Assembly (NCBI GenBank): GCA_000710935.1 | Contig: BAYV01000003.1 | Coordinates: 1-64,000 of the forward strand | Length of the DNA stretch: 64,000 nt | Source: Iodidimonas nitroreducens | GTDB taxonomy: Bacteria > Pseudomonadota > Alphaproteobacteria > Sphingomonadales > Rhodothalassiaceae | Direction: 5' to 3' | Shown: positions 28,587 to 42,377 of the stretch, piece after piece | Layout of the letters: each line of letters opens with the position of its first letter | How positions within the stretch are numbered: position 1 is the stretch's first letter | The notes under the pieces: generated by a model | What the model was told of the DNA's origin: nothing | The model's input: only the letters and a program-made list of their open reading frames with translations | Databases searched by the model: none | Translations under genes and position numbers: made by a program

Positions 28587-28761
28587 GCCTGCCTCTTGGT
28601 GATTAAATCCGATAAAATAGATGACCTGCTCATTATGCTTAGTTTTTCTATTGCGGTAAAGTCACCTTGCCTTCACCAGCGTGCGAGGCTTGGCTTGCGG
28701 CCATGCAGCCCCCCTGTTTTTTAATCAAAACAAAACGGCCGTTTTTTGCCCTCATCCGTTT

Positions 28762-28797
28762 TTGCAATTTTCTTGTCATTATTGCATTTTTGTGCAA
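28762..28797 (+). promoter_or_regulatory. Candidate operator cluster (TTGCAA boxes) upstream of amylase
   Basis: TTGCAA is centred at 28764/28765, TTGCAT at 28784/28785 and GTGCAA at 28794/28795, giving centre spacings of 20 and 10 bases. The last two form the inverted repeat TTGCA-N6-TGCAA. The cluster ends 62 bases before the amylase start. Similar boxes precede the first lacI gene, so it is a plausible LacI-family operator. Confidence 0.45.
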
Positions 28798-32502: not shown

Positions 32503-33555
32503 TCAGGCGCCGCAGGATTCGCGAACAATCAATTCGGTTGGCAATTGTTCCGACCGCACCGCCTGACCATCGAGCAGGCGTAATAATTTGCTGATCAAAA
32601 GCCGCCCCGCCTTATCCACATCCTGAGAAATGGTGGTCAAGGTGGGGCTGGCATAGGCGGCCATGCGCACATCATCATAACCCACCACCGATATATCCGA
32701 TGGCACATGAAGCCCGCTTTTCAACAGGCCCCGCACCACCCCGATGGCGATCAGATCACTGGCCGCGATCACCCCATCAAAGCGGATCCCGCTTTCGATC
32801 AGCGCCTCGATGGATTCCATTGCCGATTCCAGATAAAAATGCGCCGAACGCACCAAAGCCGGATCGAAAGGAAGATCGGCATCCGCCAAGGCCTGCTTAT
32901 AGCCATCAAAACGCAGGCGCAATTCAGGGGCTTCGATATCGCCAATGAAGGCGATCCGCCGCCGCCCCAGCCGGATCAGATGGCTGGTGGCCCGGTGCCC
33001 GCCTTTGAAATTATCGCTGCCCACCGTGCAATATTTCTGATTGGGCAGGCGCGCCCCCCATACCACAAAGGGCACCCCGCGATCCGCAAGACTGTTGAGA
33101 TCATCATGCACCGTGCTTTGGCCCAGAAAAATCAGCCCATCTGATCGCCCGGTGCTGAGCAGAGACAACATGCCATCCAGATCGCTTGGCATCACATGCG
33201 AAATCAGCAGATCGCAATCGCGCTCGATCGTTTGATCTGCAAGCCCGCCTAAAAGATCGAGCAGGAAAGGATCGGAAATCCGCCGGTCGCGCCCCTGTGG
33301 GGGTGGGATCACCGCCGATATGGTGCGGGATGTGGGGGCCACCGGCCCCAGCTTATCGCGCAGGCGGCCGGAATAATGATGGGTTTGGGCAATCTGCCTG
33401 ATCCGGCTTTTGGTGCGCTCGCTCACCAGATCGGAATTGTTCAGGGCCCGCGAAACCGTGGAAATGGAAACGCCCGCCAGTTCTGCCAGATCTTCCAGCC
33501 GATAAAGCGGGCGATCACCAAAAACGCCCCGCTCATGCATTCGTTTTTTATCCAT
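32503..33555 (-). CDS. LacI-family regulator of glucan utilisation (first copy)
   Basis: The N-terminal helix-turn-helix and hinge helix are clear: RLEDLAELAGVSISTVSRAL, then NNSDLVSERTKSRI. A periplasmic-binding-protein-like ligand domain follows with SDGLIFLGQS, FVVWGARLP, SVVGYDDVRMAAYASPTLTTISQ and the C-terminal ELIVRESCGA. The protein is 350 residues from ATG 33555; the open frame extends much further 5' but that part is not LacI-like. It is a clear paralogue of the regulator at 38335-39369 (shared SDPF, DGLIFLG/DGIIFLG and VGSDNF segments). TTGCAA boxes 58-93 bases upstream suggest autoregulation. Its inducer is probably a maltooligosaccharide or glucose derivative. Confidence 0.9.
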   Translation of the reverse strand: MDKKRMHERGVFGDRPLYRLEDLAELAGVSISTVSRALNNSDLVSERTKSRIRQIAQTHHYSGRLRDKLGPVAPTSRTISAVIPPPQGRDRRISDPFLLDLLGGLADQTIERDCDLLISHVMPSDLDGMLSLLSTGRSDGLIFLGQSTVHDDLNSLADRGVPFVVWGARLPNQKYCTVGSDNFKGGHRATSHLIRLGRRRIAFIGDIEAPELRLRFDGYKQALADADLPFDPALVRSAHFYLESAMESIEALIESGIRFDGVIAASDLIAIGVVRGLLKSGLHVPSDISVVGYDDVRMAAYASPTLTTISQDVDKAGRLLISKLLRLLDGQAVRSEQLPTELIVRESCGA

Positions 33556-33612: not shown

Positions 33613-33648
33613 GCTTTTTGCAAATCGGCAATTCATTTTTGCAAAAGC
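33613..33648 (-). promoter_or_regulatory. Paired TTTTTGCAAA boxes upstream of first lacI gene
   Basis: GCTTTTTGCAAAT (33613-33625) and ATTTTTGCAAAAGC (33635-33648) form an imperfect inverted pair. Their TTGCAA centres are 21 bases apart, about two helical turns. They lie 58-93 bases before the lacI start and 29 or more bases after... the transporter gene end lies beyond them at 33677. The boxes resemble those before the amylase. Confidence 0.45.
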
Positions 33649-33676: not shown

Positions 33677-34924
33677 TCAGGCGGCCTGCGCTTCGCCCGC
33701 TTTGTGGCGTCCGGTGGTCTGGCGAAACAGATAAAGGCACATGAGGATCGCCAGCATGGGCACCAACGACAGATAAAAGGCGGTTTGGCCATCAAAAGCC
33801 TCGAACACCCGCCCGGTGATAAGCGAACCCGTGGTGCCCCCAAGGGCGGAGAAAATCACGATCAGCCCGGTCATCGAGGAATGCCGCGCCGTAGGCAAGG
33901 CCGATAGAATAACCGAATTGATGGCCGGATAAATCGGTGCCATGAAAAGCCCGATCAGCGGGAACAAAAAAGCCGCCAGAGGGGCCTCGGCCCAGCCGCT
34001 CACGACCTGTCCTTCCAGCCCCCTTGTGAGGGGCAAAGTCAGCAAAACAAGACCAGCCATCGCCAGCACACACACATTGAGCACGGGATACCAGCTCACC
34101 CGGCTCAAAACCGCCCCCGCGCTCAATCGCCCAATCGCCAATGAAGCGGCAAAAATGCTGGTGGCCTGCACGCTCATATCCGAAGGCAGATTTAAAACCT
34201 TGTTATTGAAATTGGGAAGCCATGTGCCGATGCCCTGCTCGATCAGCACATAAAGAAAAGCCGAAATGACAAAAACCAGCACCATCGGCAAGGCCAGCAA
34301 TGCCATCATCTTGCGAAAATCCTGAACCATCGAGCTTTTGTCCCCATGGCTGCCACTTTCATCCATTTTGGTGCTGAGCAACAACACGATATTGAACAAG
34401 CACAAGACCGCCAGAACCCAATAAACATCGAGCCAATCAGACCCGCCTGAGGATCCATCGCCGATGAAATAGCCAAAAATCCAGTAACCCGCCAGAACGC
34501 CTACCATGAACATGCCTTCAAGCACATTCATGAAACCGGCATGATCGCGGGGGTTTTTGGTGATCAATCCGATCGAGGAATAAACCGATACCTTGACGAG
34601 AGCAAAAGCCACCCCCACCGCCATGAACATCATCTTGGTCGCAAAAAAGCTATTGGCCAGCGGCATGGCCAAACAGGCGAGCGTGACCAGCAAAAGCCCC
34701 GCAATCATCGAGCGGCGATAGCCAAAACGCGGCAGGAACGACGCCACGACAAAAGAGACAATAGCAATCGAAAGATCCTTGAAACCCTCCAATATGCCCG
34801 CAGCACTTTCCGTGACCCCGAAGCTGTTGATCGATTGCATGATCACCGTGCCCACGGAATTGAGCAGGATGGCGAACACGATATAGGTCGTGATCAGCGA
34901 CAGTCGGATCCTTATCGTTTCCAC
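33677..34924 (-). CDS. MFS transporter, probable maltose/maltodextrin importer
   Basis: The product has about twelve hydrophobic segments in two halves with a charged central loop (STKMDESGSHGDKSS), typical of the major facilitator superfamily. A GTG at 34924 is chosen because GGGAGGA lies 8 bases upstream and it places the first membrane helix (LSLITTYIVFAILLNSVG) near the N-terminus; this gives 415 residues. An ATG at 34981 would add 19 polar residues without a ribosome binding site. Its location between the lacI and GH65 genes, sharing a palindromic operator region with GH65, suggests inner-membrane uptake of maltose or related sugar. The substrate is inferred from context only. Confidence 0.82.
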   Translation of the reverse strand: METIRIRLSLITTYIVFAILLNSVGTVIMQSINSFGVTESAAGILEGFKDLSIAIVSFVVASFLPRFGYRRSMIAGLLLVTLACLAMPLANSFFATKMMFMAVGVAFALVKVSVYSSIGLITKNPRDHAGFMNVLEGMFMVGVLAGYWIFGYFIGDGSSGGSDWLDVYWVLAVLCLFNIVLLLSTKMDESGSHGDKSSMVQDFRKMMALLALPMVLVFVISAFLYVLIEQGIGTWLPNFNNKVLNLPSDMSVQATSIFAASLAIGRLSAGAVLSRVSWYPVLNVCVLAMAGLVLLTLPLTRGLEGQVVSGWAEAPLAAFLFPLIGLFMAPIYPAINSVILSALPTARHSSMTGLIVIFSALGGTTGSLITGRVFEAFDGQTAFYLSLVPMLAILMCLYLFRQTTGRHKAGEAQAA

Positions 34925-35101
34925 GCGCGATATCCTCCCATTATTGCAGGCTTTTTTTGGCCCGCTTCTCTTATCTTTCATCAAGATTGGCCCTTTATCA
35001 TGGCCTTGTCACCCGATCAGCCGGTGCCGTTCCTGATGAGCCTGTCCTGATGATCCTGATGGTTATCAATTTCATGTGTCAGCATCATATCCTATTGCAT
35101 T

Positions 35102-35117
35102 ATGAAATGCATTTCAT
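35102..35117. promoter_or_regulatory. Perfect 16-bp palindromic operator candidate, MFS/GH65
   Basis: ATGAAATGCATTTCAT is a perfect 16-base palindrome in the 300-base gap between the divergent MFS and GH65 genes, 177 bases from the GTG of the former and 107 from the ATG of the latter. The 14-base core recurs at 39736-39749 and in part at 39712-39727, upstream of the receptor and the second lacI gene. Confidence 0.65.
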
Positions 35118-35224
35118 TAAGTTTTTGTCTTATAGATAACCAAGAAAATGATGATCACGCGAGGCACTGCGCTCAGCCTCTTGCCGTGAAACAATCGGTC
35201 CGACCGGGGGAGGCGTTCAGCACG

Positions 35225-37684
35225 ATGTCCATCACAAAAAACCCATTCCTTAAAGGATCACCCTACAAGCTCGATGCCTGGTCTCTCAGCGAACAGGGGG
35301 GCGAACAGGGGGTGGATCAGGCGAGCCTGCCGCGCAGCTTATCGCTTTTCTCGGTGGGCAATGGCCTGATCGGTGTGCGCGGCGGCTATGAAGATGCGCT
35401 GGATGAAGGGGATCTGGGCCGGGCTTTGGTTTATGTGAATGGCATTTATGAAACGGTTCCCATCCATTATCATGAAAAAGCCCATGGCTTTGCCGAAAGC
35501 AGCGATACCCGCCCGCCCGCGCCCAATGCAACGCCGATCCATCTTCATGCCGATGGGGAAAGGCTTCATGCCGGCAGCACGCAGCTTGTTTCATCCAGCC
35601 GCCGCCTTGATTTCAAAACCGGCGTTCTGGAAAGCCATCTGTGTTGGAAAACAGCGCGTGGCGCCATCATCACCGCCCGTTATGAACGCCTCGCCTGTCT
35701 GCAAAGGCCCGGTATTCTGGCCAGCAGAGTGACCATCAGCGTCAAGGGTGCCCCGGCTGATCTGTCCATCCACTCCTTCATTGAAGCGGCTGAAGCAGAA
35801 GCCCCCGCGCGCAATCAGGAAAAGCCCCATGAAGGGGCCCATGATCCCCGCCTTGGCCCGGCGTTCAAGCAATCCCCATTTATCAGGCGTTCCGCGATCA
35901 TCGAAGGTTTGGCGCAGGGCATGCTTTATCAACTGACCAGAAGCGGGCAATATCTGGCTGTTGTCGCCGATCATGAAGCTTCAAGTGGTCTGGAAGCGAT
36001 CACCCCCAATCCCGAAAAGGGACCAGATCAGAATGTGGAACAGGCGTATAAAGCCAGCTTATCGGATGGCGAAAGCATCAGCCTGACCAAATTCATCTGC
36101 TATGAAGCCAGCCCGCCCACTCCGCAGCCCGCCGCGCTTCAGGACCATGCCCGAAAAGCACTCGATCATCTGGCGGCCGCTAAAGCTTTGGGCTTTGCCG
36201 GGCTTTTGCTGGAACAGGCCGATGATCTGGCCGATTTCTGGGCCCATGCCGATATTGCCATTGATGGGGCGCCCGAAGATGGCTTTGCCCTGCGCTTTAA
36301 TATGTTTCAGCTTTTGCAGGCGGTGGGCCGGGGCGGCGATACATCGCTTTGCGCCAAAGGCCAAACCGGCGAAGGCTATGAAGGGCATTATTTCTGGGAT
36401 GCCGAAATTTTCGGGCTGCCCATGCTGGCATCGGCACGGCCACAGCTTGCCCGCGATATGCTGCTTTATCGCTGCCGCACTTTGGAACAATCGCGCCAAC
36501 ATGCCCGCGAAATGGGCCATGCACGCGGTGCCCTGATTGCCTGGCGCACCATCAGCGGGCGGGAATGTTCGGCTTATTTTCCTGCCGGTTCGGCGCAATA
36601 TCATATCAATAGCGATGTGGCCTATGCCCTGAAACGCTATGTGGATATGACCGGCGATGAAGATTTCCTGATCGAACACGGGGCCCGGCTTTTATTTGAA
36701 ACCGCCCTGATCTGGAATGACATCGGCTTTTTTAATCCCTTGAAAAACAATGCTTTCTGTATCAATTGTGTCACCGGGCCGGATGAATATACAGCCCTTG
36801 TGAACAATAATTTTTATACCAATGCCATGGCCCGCAGGCATCTTGATCATGCCTATGAAATCGCCCGATGGATGGAGGCGAAGGCCCCCGATGCCTTTAC
36901 CGCCCTTGCCCACAGCATCGGCCTCACCCATGATGATATCGCCCTGTGGCGCAAGGCCGCCGATCAGATGTATCTGCCCTATAGCAAAGATTTAGGGATT
37001 CATGCGCAGGATGATAGCTTTCTCGACAAGAAACCATGGGATATTGCGGGCACACCAGCCGATAAATTCCCTTTGCTTTTGCATTATCATCCGCTCAGCC
37101 TTTATCGCCATCAGATCTGCAAACAGGCCGATACGGTGCTGGCCATGGCTTTATTGGGCGATCAATTCGATCCGGCCGATATGGCCCGCGATCTTGATTA
37201 TTACGAAGGCGTAACGGTTCATGATTCAACCTTATCGGCCTGCATTTTCGGAATGCTTTCGAGCCAATTGGGGCGGGCGGAAAAGGCTTTGGATTATTTC
37301 CACCATGCCGTTTATGTGGATCTGGGGGATCTGCACAAAAACACCGGGCATGGCCTGCATATGGCCTCATCCGGGGGAAGCTGGATGTGCATCATCGAAG
37401 GATTTGCGGGGATGCGGATCAAGGGAAATGATGCCCTGAGCTTTACCCCCTGCCTGCCTGAGAAATGGACGGCCCTGCGCTTTAATCTGGGCTTTCAAAA
37501 TCGCTTGATCGCCATCGAGATTACCCCCCAAACAACGCATTATCGCCTTTTGAAAGGGGCACCCATGCGCATTTATCATGGTGATCAGATGATGATGCTG
37601 GATGAAACGCAAGAAATCAGCGCCCCTACCCGCCACACAGTCGCCGAAAACAGCGGTCAGAATAGGGGCACGAAAAGCGCATGA
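35225..37684 (+). CDS. GH65 family maltose phosphorylase-type enzyme
   Basis: The 819-residue protein follows the GH65 layout: an N-terminal beta-sandwich (RSLSLFSVGNGLIGVRGGYED), a linker, an (alpha/alpha)6 barrel, and a C-terminal beta domain. The general acid is the Glu of NCVTGPDEYTALVNNNFYTN, and the phosphate-binding region lies around MASSGGSWMCIIEGFAGMRI. Phosphorolysis of maltose gives glucose plus beta-glucose 1-phosphate. Coupling to a beta-phosphoglucomutase gene (4-base ATGA overlap) supports a phosphorylase forming the beta anomer; trehalose or kojibiose phosphorylase specificity cannot be excluded. ATG 35225 is used: the frame is open from 35102, but that overlaps the operator palindrome. 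Confidence 0.9.
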   Translation: MSITKNPFLKGSPYKLDAWSLSEQGGEQGVDQASLPRSLSLFSVGNGLIGVRGGYEDALDEGDLGRALVYVNGIYETVPIHYHEKAHGFAESSDTRPPAPNATPIHLHADGERLHAGSTQLVSSSRRLDFKTGVLESHLCWKTARGAIITARYERLACLQRPGILASRVTISVKGAPADLSIHSFIEAAEAEAPARNQEKPHEGAHDPRLGPAFKQSPFIRRSAIIEGLAQGMLYQLTRSGQYLAVVADHEASSGLEAITPNPEKGPDQNVEQAYKASLSDGESISLTKFICYEASPPTPQPAALQDHARKALDHLAAAKALGFAGLLLEQADDLADFWAHADIAIDGAPEDGFALRFNMFQLLQAVGRGGDTSLCAKGQTGEGYEGHYFWDAEIFGLPMLASARPQLARDMLLYRCRTLEQSRQHAREMGHARGALIAWRTISGRECSAYFPAGSAQYHINSDVAYALKRYVDMTGDEDFLIEHGARLLFETALIWNDIGFFNPLKNNAFCINCVTGPDEYTALVNNNFYTNAMARRHLDHAYEIARWMEAKAPDAFTALAHSIGLTHDDIALWRKAADQMYLPYSKDLGIHAQDDSFLDKKPWDIAGTPADKFPLLLHYHPLSLYRHQICKQADTVLAMALLGDQFDPADMARDLDYYEGVTVHDSTLSACIFGMLSSQLGRAEKALDYFHHAVYVDLGDLHKNTGHGLHMASSGGSWMCIIEGFAGMRIKGNDALSFTPCLPEKWTALRFNLGFQNRLIAIEITPQTTHYRLLKGAPMRIYHGDQMMMLDETQEISAPTRHTVAENSGQNRGTKSA

Positions 37685-38334
37685 TAAAGCGAATTTTCAA
37701 AGCCGTTCTCTTTGATCTCGATGGCGTGCTGGCCGATAGCGCCATGGAGCATTTCAAGGCCTGGAAAAAGCTTGCTGATGACTTGGGCATTGCCTTTGAT
37801 ATCGATATCAATGAACGCCTGAAAGGGGTGAGCCGCATGGCATCCCTTGATATATTGTTGGAAAAGGCATCGCGATCTTATACAAACGCCGAAAAAATCC
37901 AGCTTGCGGATCGCAAGAATGGCTATTATCGCACCATCATCGAGCAGCTCAGCCCGGATGCTCTGCTGCCCGGGGCCCGTGATGCCCTTCTCGCCTGTCG
38001 CGACATGGGCTTGCAAACCGCATTGGCTTCGGCCAGCCGCAATGCCCCTACCCTGATCGAAAGGCTGCAGATCAGTGATCTGATCGATTATATTGCCGAT
38101 GCCGGGGCGGCCAGGCATTCAAAACCCGCCCCCGATATTTTCCTCATGGCGGCCAAGGGGGTTAGCTGTGATCCCCAAGCCTGCCTTGCTTTGGATGATG
38201 CGAAAGCCGGCGTGCAATCGGCGAAGGCGGCGGGCTGTTTTGTGATTGGTGTGGGGGATCGCGAGACCCTTGATGAAGCCGATGCCATCATCCCCAATAT
38301 CGCCGCCTTCAGGCCAGCGGACTACTGCCGCTGA
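37681..38334 (+). CDS. pgmB: Beta-phosphoglucomutase
   Basis: The 217-residue HAD-superfamily enzyme has the nucleophile/acid motif FDLDGVLADS (D12, D14), the cap-domain HFKAWKKLADD and GVSRMASLDILL typical of beta-PGM, motif II ASASRNAP, the Lys in KPAPDIFL and the acidic motif LALDDAKAGVQSAKAAG. It converts beta-glucose 1-phosphate to glucose 6-phosphate, the step after a GH65 phosphorylase. It overlaps the GH65 gene by four bases. Its TGA stop at 38332-38334 directly abuts the stop of the convergent lacI gene. Confidence 0.93.
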   Translation: MIKRIFKAVLFDLDGVLADSAMEHFKAWKKLADDLGIAFDIDINERLKGVSRMASLDILLEKASRSYTNAEKIQLADRKNGYYRTIIEQLSPDALLPGARDALLACRDMGLQTALASASRNAPTLIERLQISDLIDYIADAGAARHSKPAPDIFLMAAKGVSCDPQACLALDDAKAGVQSAKAAGCFVIGVGDRETLDEADAIIPNIAAFRPADYCR

Positions 38335-39369
38335 TCAGCTCGAATCCCGAATGATCAGGCGAGTTTCGAGCATCGCCGAAGCAGGCCTGTGGCCCTCAAT
38401 CGCCAGCATCAGCTTTTCAACCAATAAGGCGCCCGCCCGGTGCACATCCTGCCGAATGCTGCTCAAGGCCGGGTGGAAATGTTCGGCGGCCGGAATATCA
38501 TTATAGCCCACCACAGAAACATCTGCGGGCACCGCCAACCCGGCCTGACGCAAAGCGCTGATCACCGCCATCGCCGCCGTATCGCTGCCCGCGAAAATGG
38601 CATCGGGGATCGGATCAGGGCTTTTCATCATCCGGGTGGCGGCTTCATGGCTTGTGGCATAAGAAAAATCGACCATCGACAGATCGGTGATCTGCAAGCG
38701 CGCCTTGTCCTCGGGATGGCTTTCGCAATATTCATCAAGGGCCGCCACAAGCCCCTGACGACGAGCCGAAATCTCAAAATGCTGGGGATCGCCGATGAAC
38801 AGGAAACGGGATCGTCCGCGTTCGAGCAGATGGCGGCCGGCCAATAAACCACCGCGAAAATTATCGCTTCCCACCGCACAATAAGACAGCCCATCTTCCA
38901 CAGCCCCCCACACCACAAAAGGCACAGGGCGGCCCGCAAGGGCGATCAATTCATCCCGGCGCCCGCCTTCCCCCAAAAAGATGATACCATCCGCCCCCCC
39001 TGATAAGGTAAGGGATGCCAATTGCTCGATAGTGCTATGGCTGGGCGAACATAAAAGCAAATCCTGATCCCGCTCGCCCAAAGCTTCGGAAACGCCCGCC
39101 AGCAGATTGAAGATGAACGGATCGGAAATGCGATTTTCACGATGAGAGCCGAAATCAAGCACCACCGCGATGGTATGGGCACGATTTTGCCGCAGTTTTC
39201 TGGCATTGCGATTGACCACATAGCCATATTTTGCAGCGACTTCGAGCACATGCTGGCGGGTTTGTTCGGTCACCAGCGGGCTGTTGCTCAAAGCCCGCGA
39301 AACCGTTGGCTTTGAAACCCTGGCAAGGCGCGCGATATCGTCCATCGTTTTCGCCCGCCTGCCGATCAT
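38335..39369 (-). CDS. LacI-family regulator of glucan utilisation (second copy)
   Basis: The DNA-binding region reads TMDDIARLARVSKPTVSRAL then SNSPLVTEQTRQHVLEVAA, followed by a ligand-binding domain with ADGIIFLGEGG, FVVWGAVED, AVGSDNFRGG and SVVGYNDIPAAEHFHPALSSIRQD. ATG 39369 gives 344 residues; 39345 is also possible, and the frame can be extended to a TTG at 39390. It is divergent from the TonB-dependent receptor and convergent with pgmB. The paired palindromes upstream of the receptor make it the best candidate to bind that site, but the other LacI copy could do so. No glucokinase gene accompanies the set. Confidence 0.9.
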   Translation of the reverse strand: MIGRRAKTMDDIARLARVSKPTVSRALSNSPLVTEQTRQHVLEVAAKYGYVVNRNARKLRQNRAHTIAVVLDFGSHRENRISDPFIFNLLAGVSEALGERDQDLLLCSPSHSTIEQLASLTLSGGADGIIFLGEGGRRDELIALAGRPVPFVVWGAVEDGLSYCAVGSDNFRGGLLAGRHLLERGRSRFLFIGDPQHFEISARRQGLVAALDEYCESHPEDKARLQITDLSMVDFSYATSHEAATRMMKSPDPIPDAIFAGSDTAAMAVISALRQAGLAVPADVSVVGYNDIPAAEHFHPALSSIRQDVHRAGALLVEKLMLAIEGHRPASAMLETRLIIRDSS

Positions 39370-39653
39370 TTTTGTGCCAGTCCCTTTCAACCCATCACCC
39401 CTTTGAACTCTTCCCCCTCAAAGGGGTCTGAAGCATTTTCCGATCAAAGTGGACCGGATCAAATGCTCTCAATATCTGTTTGACCGCGATTTCCTTGCCG
39501 CGTCGTGATCCCACTCCGCTCGAAATCGCTCTAGCCTATCATAACCAAAGCTCTCGGCCTCTTAACATGATTTGAGTTGCAAGCAAAAACGACGATCTCC
39601 CTTCCCTCGGAAAATTGATGCGCTCCCCTTGTTTTGAAAGTTCATGACACAGG

Positions 39654-39671
39654 CTAGAGTCAGGACCCTAG
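39654..39671. repeat. Dispersed CTAG palindrome, copy 1 (imperfect)
   Basis: CTAGAGTC-AG-GACCCTAG is an 18-base inverted repeat with one mismatched pair. Its reverse complement differs by one base from the perfect palindrome at 54794-54811. It lies in the control region between lacI and the receptor gene, just upstream of the operator pair. Confidence 0.6.
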
Positions 39672-39711
39672 ATGCTGATCTGCCACAGTCCACCTGTTTT
39701 ATAGACCGGCT

Positions 39712-39727
39712 ATGAAATGCATTTTAG
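39712..39727 (+). promoter_or_regulatory. Operator candidate, distal half of receptor pair
   Basis: ATGAAATGCATTTTAG matches the perfect palindrome at 35102 in 14 of 16 positions, with one half-site intact. Its centre is 23 bases from that of the next copy. Confidence 0.55.
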
Positions 39728-39734
39728 AAAAACA

Positions 39735-39750
39735 TTGAAATGCATTTCAT
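39735..39750 (+). promoter_or_regulatory. Operator candidate, proximal half of receptor pair
   Basis: TTGAAATGCATTTCAT has a perfect 14-base palindromic core (39736-39749) identical to the core at 35103-35116. It ends 161 bases before the receptor ATG. Confidence 0.62.
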
Positions 39751-39911: not shown

Positions 39912-42377
39912 ATGACCTCAAAAACACACGGCTCACGAACCGCGCGCATAGCAGCACGCGGTTTCCTGTCAACAGTCGCAGGCTTTGCCCTGCTTTATGG
40001 TGCAAGCGCTGCAACCGGGCAGGCTTTTGCGCAAATAACGGCCGCCGATAGCGAGCAGGCTGCCGATCAGCTGAGCGAACGCGAACAAAGCAATACCCTC
40101 AGCCTTGAGGAAATCGTGGTCACTGGTCGCCCCGGCGGCGCGGGGATGAAGAAGCTGGATGCCAGCTTTGCCATCACCACCATGAATAATGATGCAATTA
40201 ACAAATTCGCGCCCAAAAGCACCGCCGATCTTCTGAAAGCGGTTCCCGGTGTGTGGGCTGAAAGCTCTGGCGGTGAATCCGGTGCCAATATCTTCGTGCG
40301 CGGCTTTCCCGGCGCAGGTGACGCCGAATTCGTGACGATTCAGGTGGATGGCATGCCCATCTTCCCGCCCCCCACATTGTCTTTCCTTGAAAATTCCAGC
40401 TTGTTTCGGATCGATGAAACGGTTGAGCGCATGGAAGCTTTGCGCGGCGGCCCCAATCCTGTCTTCTCCAATGGCCAGCCAGGGGTAACGGTCAATTTCA
40501 TCCAAAAACAAGGTGGCCCGGAAACCGAAGGCATCTTAAAGCTGTCTGGCACCGATTTTGGTGAAAAGCGGGTCGATGTGCAGATGAGCGGCCCCTTGGC
40601 GGATGATCTGTTCTACAGCTTTGGCGGCTTTTACCGCACATCGAACGGGATCAGGGACGCCGAATTCAATTCCGAACGGGGCGGACAGATCAGCGCCAAT
40701 ATCACGAAATTGTTCGATAATGGACAGATCAATGTCTATACCCGCTTCCTTGATGATCGCGGGGCCTGGCTTTTGCCGATCCCCCTTTTGTCGGATGAAA
40801 ATGGCAATATCGAAGAATTCCCGGGCTTTGATCGCGGTACCGGCAATCTGATCGGCAATGGCAATCGCTTGGGCGTAATCGAAACCGGCCGAAATGGCGA
40901 AACCCGCCGTCTGGATCTGGCCGATGGCCGGGGTGCAGAAACCTTTATGATCGGCGGCAGCGCAGAATTTGAATTCGATGGCGGCTGGACTATCCGCGAG
41001 AAATTCAATTATATGTCGGGCGATGCTGATACCATCGGCCTGGTGCCTGCCAATACCCCCCGCACCTTGGGTGATATTCTCGCCGGGATCGACACGAATG
41101 GCGTGGGCGGCACCTTCACCTTCACCGAATCCGGCGAACAAATCACCGATCTTAGCCAACAGGCGCTAACGGCGGGCATGTGGTCAGTGGAAAAGGATAT
41201 CGAATCCTTTACCAATGATTTTTCGGTGGCCAAAGATCTGTTTGAAGGCAACACCTTCACTGTTGGCCTTTATATTTCTGATTACTCATCAAACGATCTT
41301 TGGTTTCTGGGCAATGATCAGCTTCTGGCTGCCGAAGAAAATGCCCGGCGCATTGATCTCAGCCTCAATGATGGCACCCAGGTGACTCGCAATGGCTTTA
41401 TCGGCGCGCCTTTCTTTGATGTGAATGCCGCTTATAATGGCCGCAATATTGCCGCCTATTTTGCTGATGAATGGCAGATCACCCCCGATCTGCGCATCGA
41501 TGCCGGCTTCCGCATCGAAAACCAGAATGTTGATGCCACCCTAGAAAATGTTGATTTCGGTGTCGATCTTGATGATGATCCCACCACGCTTTTCAACAAT
41601 AATGCCGCTATTTTGAATGGCTCATTCCGCACCATCAATTTTGATGAAACGGAAACATCCTGGACCATCGGTGCGAACTATAATCTGAACCAGGATATGG
41701 CGATCTTTGCCCGGGTCAATAATGGTCAGAAATTCCCGCAATTTGATAATCTGCGGGATGGCGCGGATGGCATTCAATCCATTGACCAATATGAAGTGGG
41801 GCTGAAGGCTTCAACGGATATGGTCAGTGTGTTTGCAACCCTATTCTACAATGATTTCACCGGATTGCCCGAACAGCGCTTCATCGATGGCGAAAATGTG
41901 GTGATCATTTCCGGCTCGAATGCCATTGGTGTGGAAGGTGAATTCGTCGTGCGGCCTTTTGAAGGCATGTCGCTTGCCCTGACCGGCACATGGCAGGATG
42001 CGGAATTCGATGGGAAAAGCGTTAATGACGGCAATCGCGTGCAACGCCAACCGAAATTGCAATTGCGCTTTACCCCCAGCTACGACATCGCCCTGCCCTG
42101 GGGCTTTGCCACCCTTTATGGCACCTTCACCCATGTGGGGGATCGCTTCTCGGATTCTGAAAATCAGCAGGTTCTGGAAGATTATCAAAAGCTCGATGCC
42201 GGGGTCGTCATGGATGTGGATAACTGGACCTTTCAGGTCACCGCAGACAATCTCACCGACAGCCATGGCTTGACCGAAGGCAATCCCCGTGTTCTGGGGG
42301 CCCAAACCGGCACGGCGATCTTTGCCCGGCCGATTTTGGGGCGGTCCTTCCGCTTCAGCCTCAGCTACAATTTCTAA
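39912..42377 (+). CDS. TonB-dependent outer-membrane receptor, probable maltodextrin uptake
   Basis: The 821-residue product has a signal peptide (about residues 1-40, ending QAFAQ), a TonB box region (SLEEIVVTGRP), a plug domain (KSTADLLKAVPGVWAESSGGE, VRGFPGAGDAEFVTIQVDGMP) and a long beta-barrel ending in the aromatic FSLSYNF. ATG 39912 is chosen because GGGAGGA lies just upstream; an ATG at 39888 adds eight residues without a better site. There is no N-terminal STN signalling domain, unlike the receptor at 46352. Position and operators place it in the glucan locus, as with MalA-type receptors that import maltodextrins; the substrate is inferred. ExbB, ExbD and TonB are not in the window. 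Confidence 0.88.
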   Translation: MTSKTHGSRTARIAARGFLSTVAGFALLYGASAATGQAFAQITAADSEQAADQLSEREQSNTLSLEEIVVTGRPGGAGMKKLDASFAITTMNNDAINKFAPKSTADLLKAVPGVWAESSGGESGANIFVRGFPGAGDAEFVTIQVDGMPIFPPPTLSFLENSSLFRIDETVERMEALRGGPNPVFSNGQPGVTVNFIQKQGGPETEGILKLSGTDFGEKRVDVQMSGPLADDLFYSFGGFYRTSNGIRDAEFNSERGGQISANITKLFDNGQINVYTRFLDDRGAWLLPIPLLSDENGNIEEFPGFDRGTGNLIGNGNRLGVIETGRNGETRRLDLADGRGAETFMIGGSAEFEFDGGWTIREKFNYMSGDADTIGLVPANTPRTLGDILAGIDTNGVGGTFTFTESGEQITDLSQQALTAGMWSVEKDIESFTNDFSVAKDLFEGNTFTVGLYISDYSSNDLWFLGNDQLLAAEENARRIDLSLNDGTQVTRNGFIGAPFFDVNAAYNGRNIAAYFADEWQITPDLRIDAGFRIENQNVDATLENVDFGVDLDDDPTTLFNNNAAILNGSFRTINFDETETSWTIGANYNLNQDMAIFARVNNGQKFPQFDNLRDGADGIQSIDQYEVGLKASTDMVSVFATLFYNDFTGLPEQRFIDGENVVIISGSNAIGVEGEFVVRPFEGMSLALTGTWQDAEFDGKSVNDGNRVQRQPKLQLRFTPSYDIALPWGFATLYGTFTHVGDRFSDSENQQVLEDYQKLDAGVVMDVDNWTFQVTADNLTDSHGLTEGNPRVLGAQTGTAIFARPILGRSFRFSLSYNF

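What the first reader, a model, noticed from the sequence alone, without database searches (positions are those of the whole stretch)
35102..39750. Shared palindromic operator linking transporter, phosphorylase, receptor and second lacI
A perfect 16-bp palindrome with core TGAAATGCATTTCA lies between the divergent MFS and GH65 genes. The same 14-base core, plus a second degenerate copy 23 bases away, lies between the second lacI gene and the TonB receptor. One regulator binding both regions would control uptake across both membranes and phosphorolysis together. The core has a central GC step rather than the CG common in LacI operators.
Basis: partly seen in the sequence, partly recalled or inferred. 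Interest (0 to 1): 0.62.

Follow-up and report, generated by a model that had tools for sequence, protein, structure and literature searches.

The report
Shared operator of a trehalose-uptake regulon
A short mirror-image DNA sequence found at both promoters of a bacterial sugar-uptake gene cluster is very probably the landing site of the LacI-type regulator encoded between them; the cluster looks built for trehalose rather than maltose, and the site has an unusual centre for this regulator family.

Summary
A perfect 16-bp palindrome lies at 35102-35117. Its 14-bp core recurs at 39736-39749, with a one-mismatch copy 23 bp away. In the 3.08-Mb draft genome the exact core occurs only at these two places.

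Comparison with relatives assigns it to the second LacI (about 38335-39369), not the first. Of 38 distinct loci whose LacI carries the same recognition residues (K-P...R), 37 have the operator within 450 bp upstream, centred GC in 48 of 55 sites. Relatives with E-A...R instead have TGCAATCGATTGCA in 6 of 6 loci. "One regulator, both membranes plus phosphorolysis" is supported by computation; no binding was measured.

The sugar is probably trehalose, not maltose: the GH65 enzyme has the trehalose-phosphorylase loop S-A-Y where maltose phosphorylase has H-N-E, and 12 of the 38 loci have a GH37 trehalase instead of GH65. Four have a GH13 glucosidase, so a broader inducer is possible.

In kind it is a known local LacI regulon. 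The unusual part is the GpC centre, kept in Alpha- and Gammaproteobacteria by a LacI that retains the hinge Ala/Leu normally tied to a central CpG.

The parts
35102..35117 (.). operator 1, perfect 16-bp palindrome ATGAAATGCATTTCAT between MFS and GH65
   Evidence: aligned copies in two relatives of the genus
39713..39726 (.). operator 2a, one-mismatch copy TGAAATGCATTTTA upstream of the TonB receptor
   Evidence: exact copy in the relative G001
39736..39749 (.). operator 2b, exact core TGAAATGCATTTCA, 23 bp from 2a
38335..39369 (-). lacI2, the proposed cognate LacI-family regulator (recognition residues K-P...R, hinge NRNARKLR)
   Evidence: PF00356 and PF13377; co-occurrence with the operator; tree. 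Start codon uncertain (ATG 39369 or TTG 39390)
33677..34981 (-). MFS inner-membrane transporter, proposed target (start ATG 34981 or TTG 34984)
   Evidence: PF07690
35225..37684 (+). GH65 phosphorylase, probably trehalose phosphorylase (loop-3 S-A-Y at residues 449-451), proposed target
   Evidence: PF03632, PF03633, PF03636; alignments
37681..38334 (+). beta-phosphoglucomutase, overlapping the end of GH65, proposed target
   Evidence: TIGR01990 above its curated cut-off
39912..42377 (+). TonB-dependent outer-membrane receptor, proposed target of the tandem site
   Evidence: PF07715 and PF00593; GGGGAGG before ATG 39912 seen by eye
32503..33555 (-). lacI1, paralog (39% identical), downstream of MFS; not the proposed cognate regulator, but may be co-transcribed with MFS

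Best explanation
The three palindromes are operators of the LacI-family protein encoded by lacI2. Without inducer, a LacI2 dimer holds the single site between MFS and GH65, and probably two cooperating dimers hold the tandem sites 23 bp apart upstream of the TonB receptor. This keeps outer-membrane uptake (TonB receptor), inner-membrane uptake (MFS) and cytoplasmic breakdown (GH65 phosphorylase plus beta-phosphoglucomutase) off together; the sugar or a derivative releases it. The sugar is most likely trehalose: GH65 would split it with phosphate into glucose and beta-glucose 1-phosphate, which beta-phosphoglucomutase turns into glucose 6-phosphate. Shown computationally: the sites, their conservation, the regulator-operator pairing, the enzyme's specificity motif. 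Inferred: binding, repression rather than activation, cooperativity, and the identity of the inducer.
For: Two exact cores in the genome, both here. The same two promoters carry the sites in I. muriae, the relative G001 and Sphingomonas. 37 of 38 K-P...R LacI loci have the operator within 450 bp upstream, against 0 of 6 E-A...R loci, which have TGCAATCGATTGCA-type sites in 6 of 6. 26 of 28 exact sites in 30 genomes lie in the LacI2 loci (positions compared by hand). In 397 genomes of the order an exact site occurs in 6 of 13 genomes with a LacI2 ortholog at 1e-78 and in 6 of 384 without (Fisher p 2.8e-7, indicative because the genomes are related). 16 of 19 adjacent site pairs are 21-23 bp apart; PMC4052901 reports a peak at 22 bp for LacI-family sites (passage). 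Trehalose: S-A-Y loop and GH37 trehalase in 12 of 38 loci.
Against: No binding or expression data. Of the 38 loci, 4 have a GH13 alpha-glucosidase only and 7 neither GH65, GH37 nor GH13 in the fetched DNA, so a broader alpha-glucoside inducer is possible. GH65 position 64 (CsKP numbering) reads E, not the T of a verified trehalose phosphorylase, in a poorly aligned stretch. No convincing sigma-70-like promoter fixes how the sites act. L154 (K-P...R) has its exact site over 2 kb upstream, and L137 (K-T...R, with a trehalase) has none. 9 of 30 LacI2 genomes have no exact core, only variants or none. Loci are related to one another, so counts are not independent.
Confidence: 0.82

Rival explanations
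1. The sites are bound by LacI1 (32503-33555), or by both LacIs, and the cluster serves maltose and maltodextrins together with the neighbouring alpha-amylase and GH13 genes.
For: LacI1 lies next to the MFS gene and is 39% identical to LacI2; alpha-amylase-type and GH13 genes adjoin it; Iodidimonas strains grow on or weakly assimilate maltose (passages of PMC9415286 and PMC10556733).
Against: G001 has no lacI1 at the locus and no second LacI2-like match at 1e-40 in its genome, but keeps three sites. LacI1-type proteins (I-S...R) have the operator in 0 of 5 loci; in two relatives they sit with the amylase and GH13 genes far from GH65 (L067, L078). LacI1 lacks the usual Ala/Leu hinge. GH65 lacks the maltose H-N-E triad.
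Confidence: 0.08
2. LacI2 activates rather than represses, or does so at the tandem site.
For: In Shewanella a LacI-family MalR behaves like an activator in mutant-fitness data (PMC5443562 passage); the tandem sites lie about 162-199 bp upstream of the receptor's likely start.
Against: PMC4052901 states that the majority of LacI-family regulators bind DNA in the absence of ligand (passage); the single site lies about 107 and 120 bp from the two divergent starts, and that survey places more than 75% of sites 30-140 bp upstream of a start.
Confidence: 0.12
3. The palindrome is a chance or structural repeat with no regulatory role.
For: Within the window alone, 4 of 100 shuffles reach three matches at up to two mismatches.
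Against: Genome-wide rarity, conserved islands and co-occurrence with LacI2 across two classes.
Confidence: 0.01

Closest known systems
LacI-family local sugar regulons (PMC4052901, Ravcheev et al. 2014)
   Same: Even palindromic operator, divergent genes, tandem sites about 22 bp apart, local sugar targets.
   Different: Central GC instead of CG: in that survey 1173 of 1251 regulators with even palindromes have CG, 49 another pair and 29 a degenerate one (passages).
Predicted trehalose pathway of Shewanella: treR-II, treT, omp-Tre, treP (PMC2996990, table passage)
   Same: A regulator, a transporter, an outer-membrane transporter and treP listed together for trehalose.
   Different: Orthology and operator motif were not compared; the details are in an additional file that I did not see.
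TonB-receptor carbohydrate utilisation (CUT) loci: Xanthomonas sux, Caulobacter mal (PMC1790865 passages)
   Same: TonB receptor, inner-membrane transporter, sugar enzyme and regulator clustered together.
   Different: Other sugars and enzymes; relationship of the regulators not tested.
GH65 trehalose phosphorylase, EC 2.4.1.64 (PMC8537180)
   Same: Loop-3 triad S-A-Y; R392, I394, P416, P585 as in the verified Thermobispora bispora enzyme (TRIGPP).
   Different: A402 instead of G; position 64 reads E in a poor alignment; activity untested. [quoted passage not shown]
GluR, a LacI-family regulator of zwf-pgl-edd-glk in Caulobacter (PMC4052901 passage)
   Same: A third LacI paralog in this genome lies near glucose-6-phosphate dehydrogenase and dehydratase (edd-type) genes.
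   Different: Resemblance of neighbourhood only; motif and orthology not compared.

Membership tests
LacI family regulator (lacI2) | LacI HTH plus periplasmic-binding-protein-like core | tested here: met
   PF00356 1.9e-13, PF13377 6.1e-28
LacI family regulator (lacI2) | Hinge helix with conserved Ala and Leu | tested here: met
   Window hinge NRNARKLR; A and L in 38 of 38 K-P...R proteins
LacI family regulator (lacI2) | Even palindromic operator with central CG | tested here: not met
   Even palindrome yes; centre GC in 48 of 55 sites and CG in none of the K-P...R class. Non-CG centres are a known minority (PMC4052901), so this does not exclude membership
LacI family regulator (lacI2) | Binds its operator and releases it with a sugar | not testable with these tools
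   No binding assay
Trehalose phosphorylase (GH65) | GH65 domains and S-A-Y loop-3 triad | tested here: met
   meaning of the triad from PMC8537180
Trehalose phosphorylase (GH65) | Six correlated positions like TRIGPP | tested here: inconclusive
   4 of 6 identical (R, I, P, P), A for G, and an unsure E for T; mapped by hand
Maltose phosphorylase (GH65) | H-N-E triad, KV[MF]NES motif | tested here: not met
   S-A-Y; 0 of the 5 positions 392-585 match, position 64 unsure
Kojibiose phosphorylase (GH65) | T-P-K triad, EEAPxx motif | tested here: not met
   S-A-Y; 0 of positions 392, 394, 402 match; the unsure E at 64 would match
Shewanella TreR-II regulon | Orthologous regulator and shared operator motif | not tested
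   Shewanella loci were not identified; additional file not seen

The most novel reading that the evidence does not exclude
A whole LacI subfamily, spread over Alpha- and Gammaproteobacteria, has shifted its operator centre from CpG to GpC while keeping the hinge Ala/Leu that normally wedges into CpG. The rest of the hinge (R-N-A-Q-K-L against x-x-A-R-N-[FL]) changed with it, possibly through a state like that of L064 (Q-P...R with TGAAATCGATTTCA), and the shift may keep this regulon from crossing with the paralog that has TGCAATCGATTGCA sites in the same cell.
Probability: 0.5. Interest if true: 0.65.

Novelty: new variant of a known kind. Interest (0 to 1): 0.45.

Why it matters
The regulator-operator pairs form a natural series (E-A...R with TGCAAT-CG, Q-P...R with TGAAAT-CG, K-P...R with TGAAAT-GC) that makes the LacI recognition code directly testable, including the centre, where covariance analysis could not resolve contacts because CG is so conserved (PMC2978694, figure S1 legend). 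It also points a cluster that invites a maltose label towards trehalose, and suggests GH65 trehalose phosphorylase in Gram-negative bacteria.

Tried and rejected
LacI1 as cognate regulator: rejected (0 of 5 loci; only 3 of 38 K-P...R loci hold a LacI1-like gene; G001 lacks it). Maltose as the sugar: disfavoured by the GH65 loop and the trehalase replacement. A larger regulon: of the 15 other places in the genome within two mismatches, 12 were looked at; 10 lie inside an ORF of at least 90 aa in a mechanical scan, 2 do not (L006, L011); apart from the contig-100 site the genes were not identified and 3 places were not looked at. So a further target is not excluded. Promoter position: no sigma-70-like match at the MFS/GH65 gap and 3 weak matches near the receptor, one overlapping the sites on the minus strand; left open. 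I first thought from memory that lac- and CelR-type operators have GC centres; writing them out shows CG, so that argument was dropped. Literature: the exact 14-mer occurs in one paper of the held library (an Enterococcus paper, search listing only). The nine searches surfaced no description of this operator in the listings and passages I saw.
Full report
What is there. The window is contig 106 of a 3.08-Mb draft genome. The cluster runs alpha-amylase (28842, +), GH13 (about 30805, +), lacI1 (-), MFS (-), operator 1, GH65 (+), beta-phosphoglucomutase (+), lacI2 (-), tandem operators 2a and 2b, TonB receptor (+).

More than chance. The exact core occurs twice in the genome, both here; about 0.006 are expected from the window's composition. 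At up to two mismatches there are 18 places against 2 for the reversed control. Besides operator 2a, one other place has a single mismatch: it lies between a glutamine-synthetase gene and an ORF without Pfam match. In the three genomes of the genus, TGAAATNNATTTCA occurs 2, 4 and 3 times, 8 of 9 in this locus, reversed control 0. Alignments of both intergenic regions show the palindromes as the conserved islands; in G001 copy 2a is exact, with the same 23-bp spacing.

Which regulator. LacI2 relatives were collected by protein searches; two loci fetched by pattern (L073, L074) hold no LacI match. After removing 7 duplicate loci, 38 LacIs carry V-S-K-P-T-V-S-R. 37 of 38 have TGAAATNNATTTCA (at most one outer mismatch) within 450 bp upstream, and none has the C-type site there; centres are GC 48, TG 3, CA 2, GG 1, CC 1. 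The exception, L154, has an exact copy over 2 kb upstream. E-A...R relatives have TGCAATNNATTGCA-type sites in 6 of 6 loci, all 12 sites CG-centred, and no A-type site. E-S...R relatives have a C-type site in 1 of 3 (centre CT). The single Q-P...R relative (L064) has TGAAATCGATTTCA. The two T-P...R relatives have none in the 450-bp stretch, but each has one hybrid TGAAATGCATTGCA (or its complement) elsewhere in the locus. K-T...R (L137), I-S...R (5 proteins, LacI1 among them), I-A...R (1), G-A...R (2), K-M...R (2), K-I...R (1) and Q-A...R (1) have neither type there. In 12 proteins the motif search failed; none of these has a site in its stretch, and one has only 2 bp of upstream DNA. In a maximum-likelihood tree the LacI2 clade of 43 rows has support 100/100; L064 falls outside it, with a group of 10 other rows between, on weakly supported forks (84/73, 90/67) and a long branch that the program flags. 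Rows are related, some nearly identical, so these counts are not independent events.

Tests not anchored on the window. In the genomes of 30 LacI2 loci there are 28 exact sites; comparing coordinates by hand, 26 lie in the fetched LacI2 loci and 2 elsewhere (in the genomes of L131 and L152); 9 of 30 genomes have none, and the reversed control has 0. In 397 genomes of the order, 13 have a LacI2 ortholog at 1e-78 (at most five candidates per genome were scored) and 12 have an exact site; both in 6. Those 6 hold 8 exact sites, all in the cluster; for the four outside the genus the gap to the lacI2 match is 114-147 bp. Without LacI2, 6 of 384 genomes have one site each, of which only one context was looked at; the reversed control occurs in 1 of 397 (Fisher p 2.8e-7, indicative only). 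The other 7 of 13 carry variant sites in their loci.

Which sugar. Aligned with solved structures, the GH65 has S-A-Y where maltose phosphorylase 1h54 has H-N-E. PMC8537180 (passages and its section 2.2 read) gives H-N-E for maltose, T-P-K for kojibiose and S-A-Y for trehalose phosphorylase of Thermoanaerobacter brockii, and TRIGPP for a verified trehalose phosphorylase at six correlated positions. Mapped by hand, this GH65 reads R392, I394, A402, P416, P585, and E at position 64 in a poor alignment; maltose phosphorylase has KV[MF]NES and kojibiose phosphorylase EEAPxx. The GH65 proteins of the fetched loci that cover the loop read S-[AS]-[YFH], except L077 (T-P-K). Among the 38 loci, 15 have GH65, 12 a GH37 trehalase, none both, 4 a GH13 alpha-glucosidase only, and 7 none found, six of these on loci of about 12 kb or less. 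Six of the 12 trehalases were scanned with Pfam (PF01204, 9e-86 to 5e-143); the others were found by BLAST with L127's protein. Eleven of the 12 have the operator within 450 bp of lacI2. Two unrelated trehalose-degrading enzymes under one regulator and operator are the strongest argument for trehalose; the GH13 cases leave room for a broader alpha-glucoside.

Mechanism. Most likely a repressor released by the sugar. 16 of 19 adjacent pairs are 21-23 bp apart and 3 are 14 bp apart. PMC4052901 (passage) reports peaks at 13, 22 and 32 bp and reads the latter two as cooperative binding. Repression rather than activation is inferred. MFS and lacI1 are co-oriented, so operator 1 might also affect lacI1; this is speculation.

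What is unusual. PMC2978694 (sections 6, 9, 11 and passages read) states that the hinge Leu inserts into a central CG and that exceptions are rare. LacI2-type proteins keep Ala and Leu in 38 of 38, yet their operator centre is mostly GC. Their hinge reads N-R-N-A-Q-K-L-R (NRNA in 38 of 38, Q in 36, K in 37; the window's own has R for Q), while the relatives with CG-centred sites read A-R-N-[FL]. The same genome has a third LacI (contig 108, E-S...R) near glucose-6-phosphate dehydrogenase, an edd-type dehydratase and a sodium:solute symporter; TACAATCGATTGCA lies between the dehydrogenase and symporter genes, and TGCAATCGATTGCA beyond the end of the dehydratase gene. A changed half-site and centre could keep the two regulons apart. 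Whether the centre change is coupled to the hinge is untested; it is essentially one clade, so the correlation may be one event.

Verdict. An ordinary local LacI regulon in architecture, well assigned, with a corrected regulator and sugar, and an operator centre that makes it a useful variant. The re-check changed wording, added controls and left the odds as they were.

Noticed in passing
32503-33555; 33615-33645; 28759-28767: LacI1 lacks the usual Ala/Leu hinge (reads GRLRDKLG). TTTTTGCA/TTTGCAA boxes lie upstream of lacI1 and of the alpha-amylase, and similar boxes upstream of lacI1-type genes in relatives; possibly LacI1's own operator type, not tested against a background.
   Followed up: partly
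G000 contig 108: 20069-28611 (L075): A third LacI paralog near glucose-6-phosphate dehydrogenase, an edd-type dehydratase and a sodium:solute symporter, with TGCAATCGATTGCA-type sites.
   Followed up: partly
L139, L151, L152, L153: A GH13 alpha-glucosidase stands in the place of GH65 under the same LacI2 type and operator.
   Followed up: no
G027 contig 3: 587971 (L073:7972): An exact copy of the core inside a 664-aa open reading frame in a genome without a LacI2 ortholog; probably chance.
   Followed up: no
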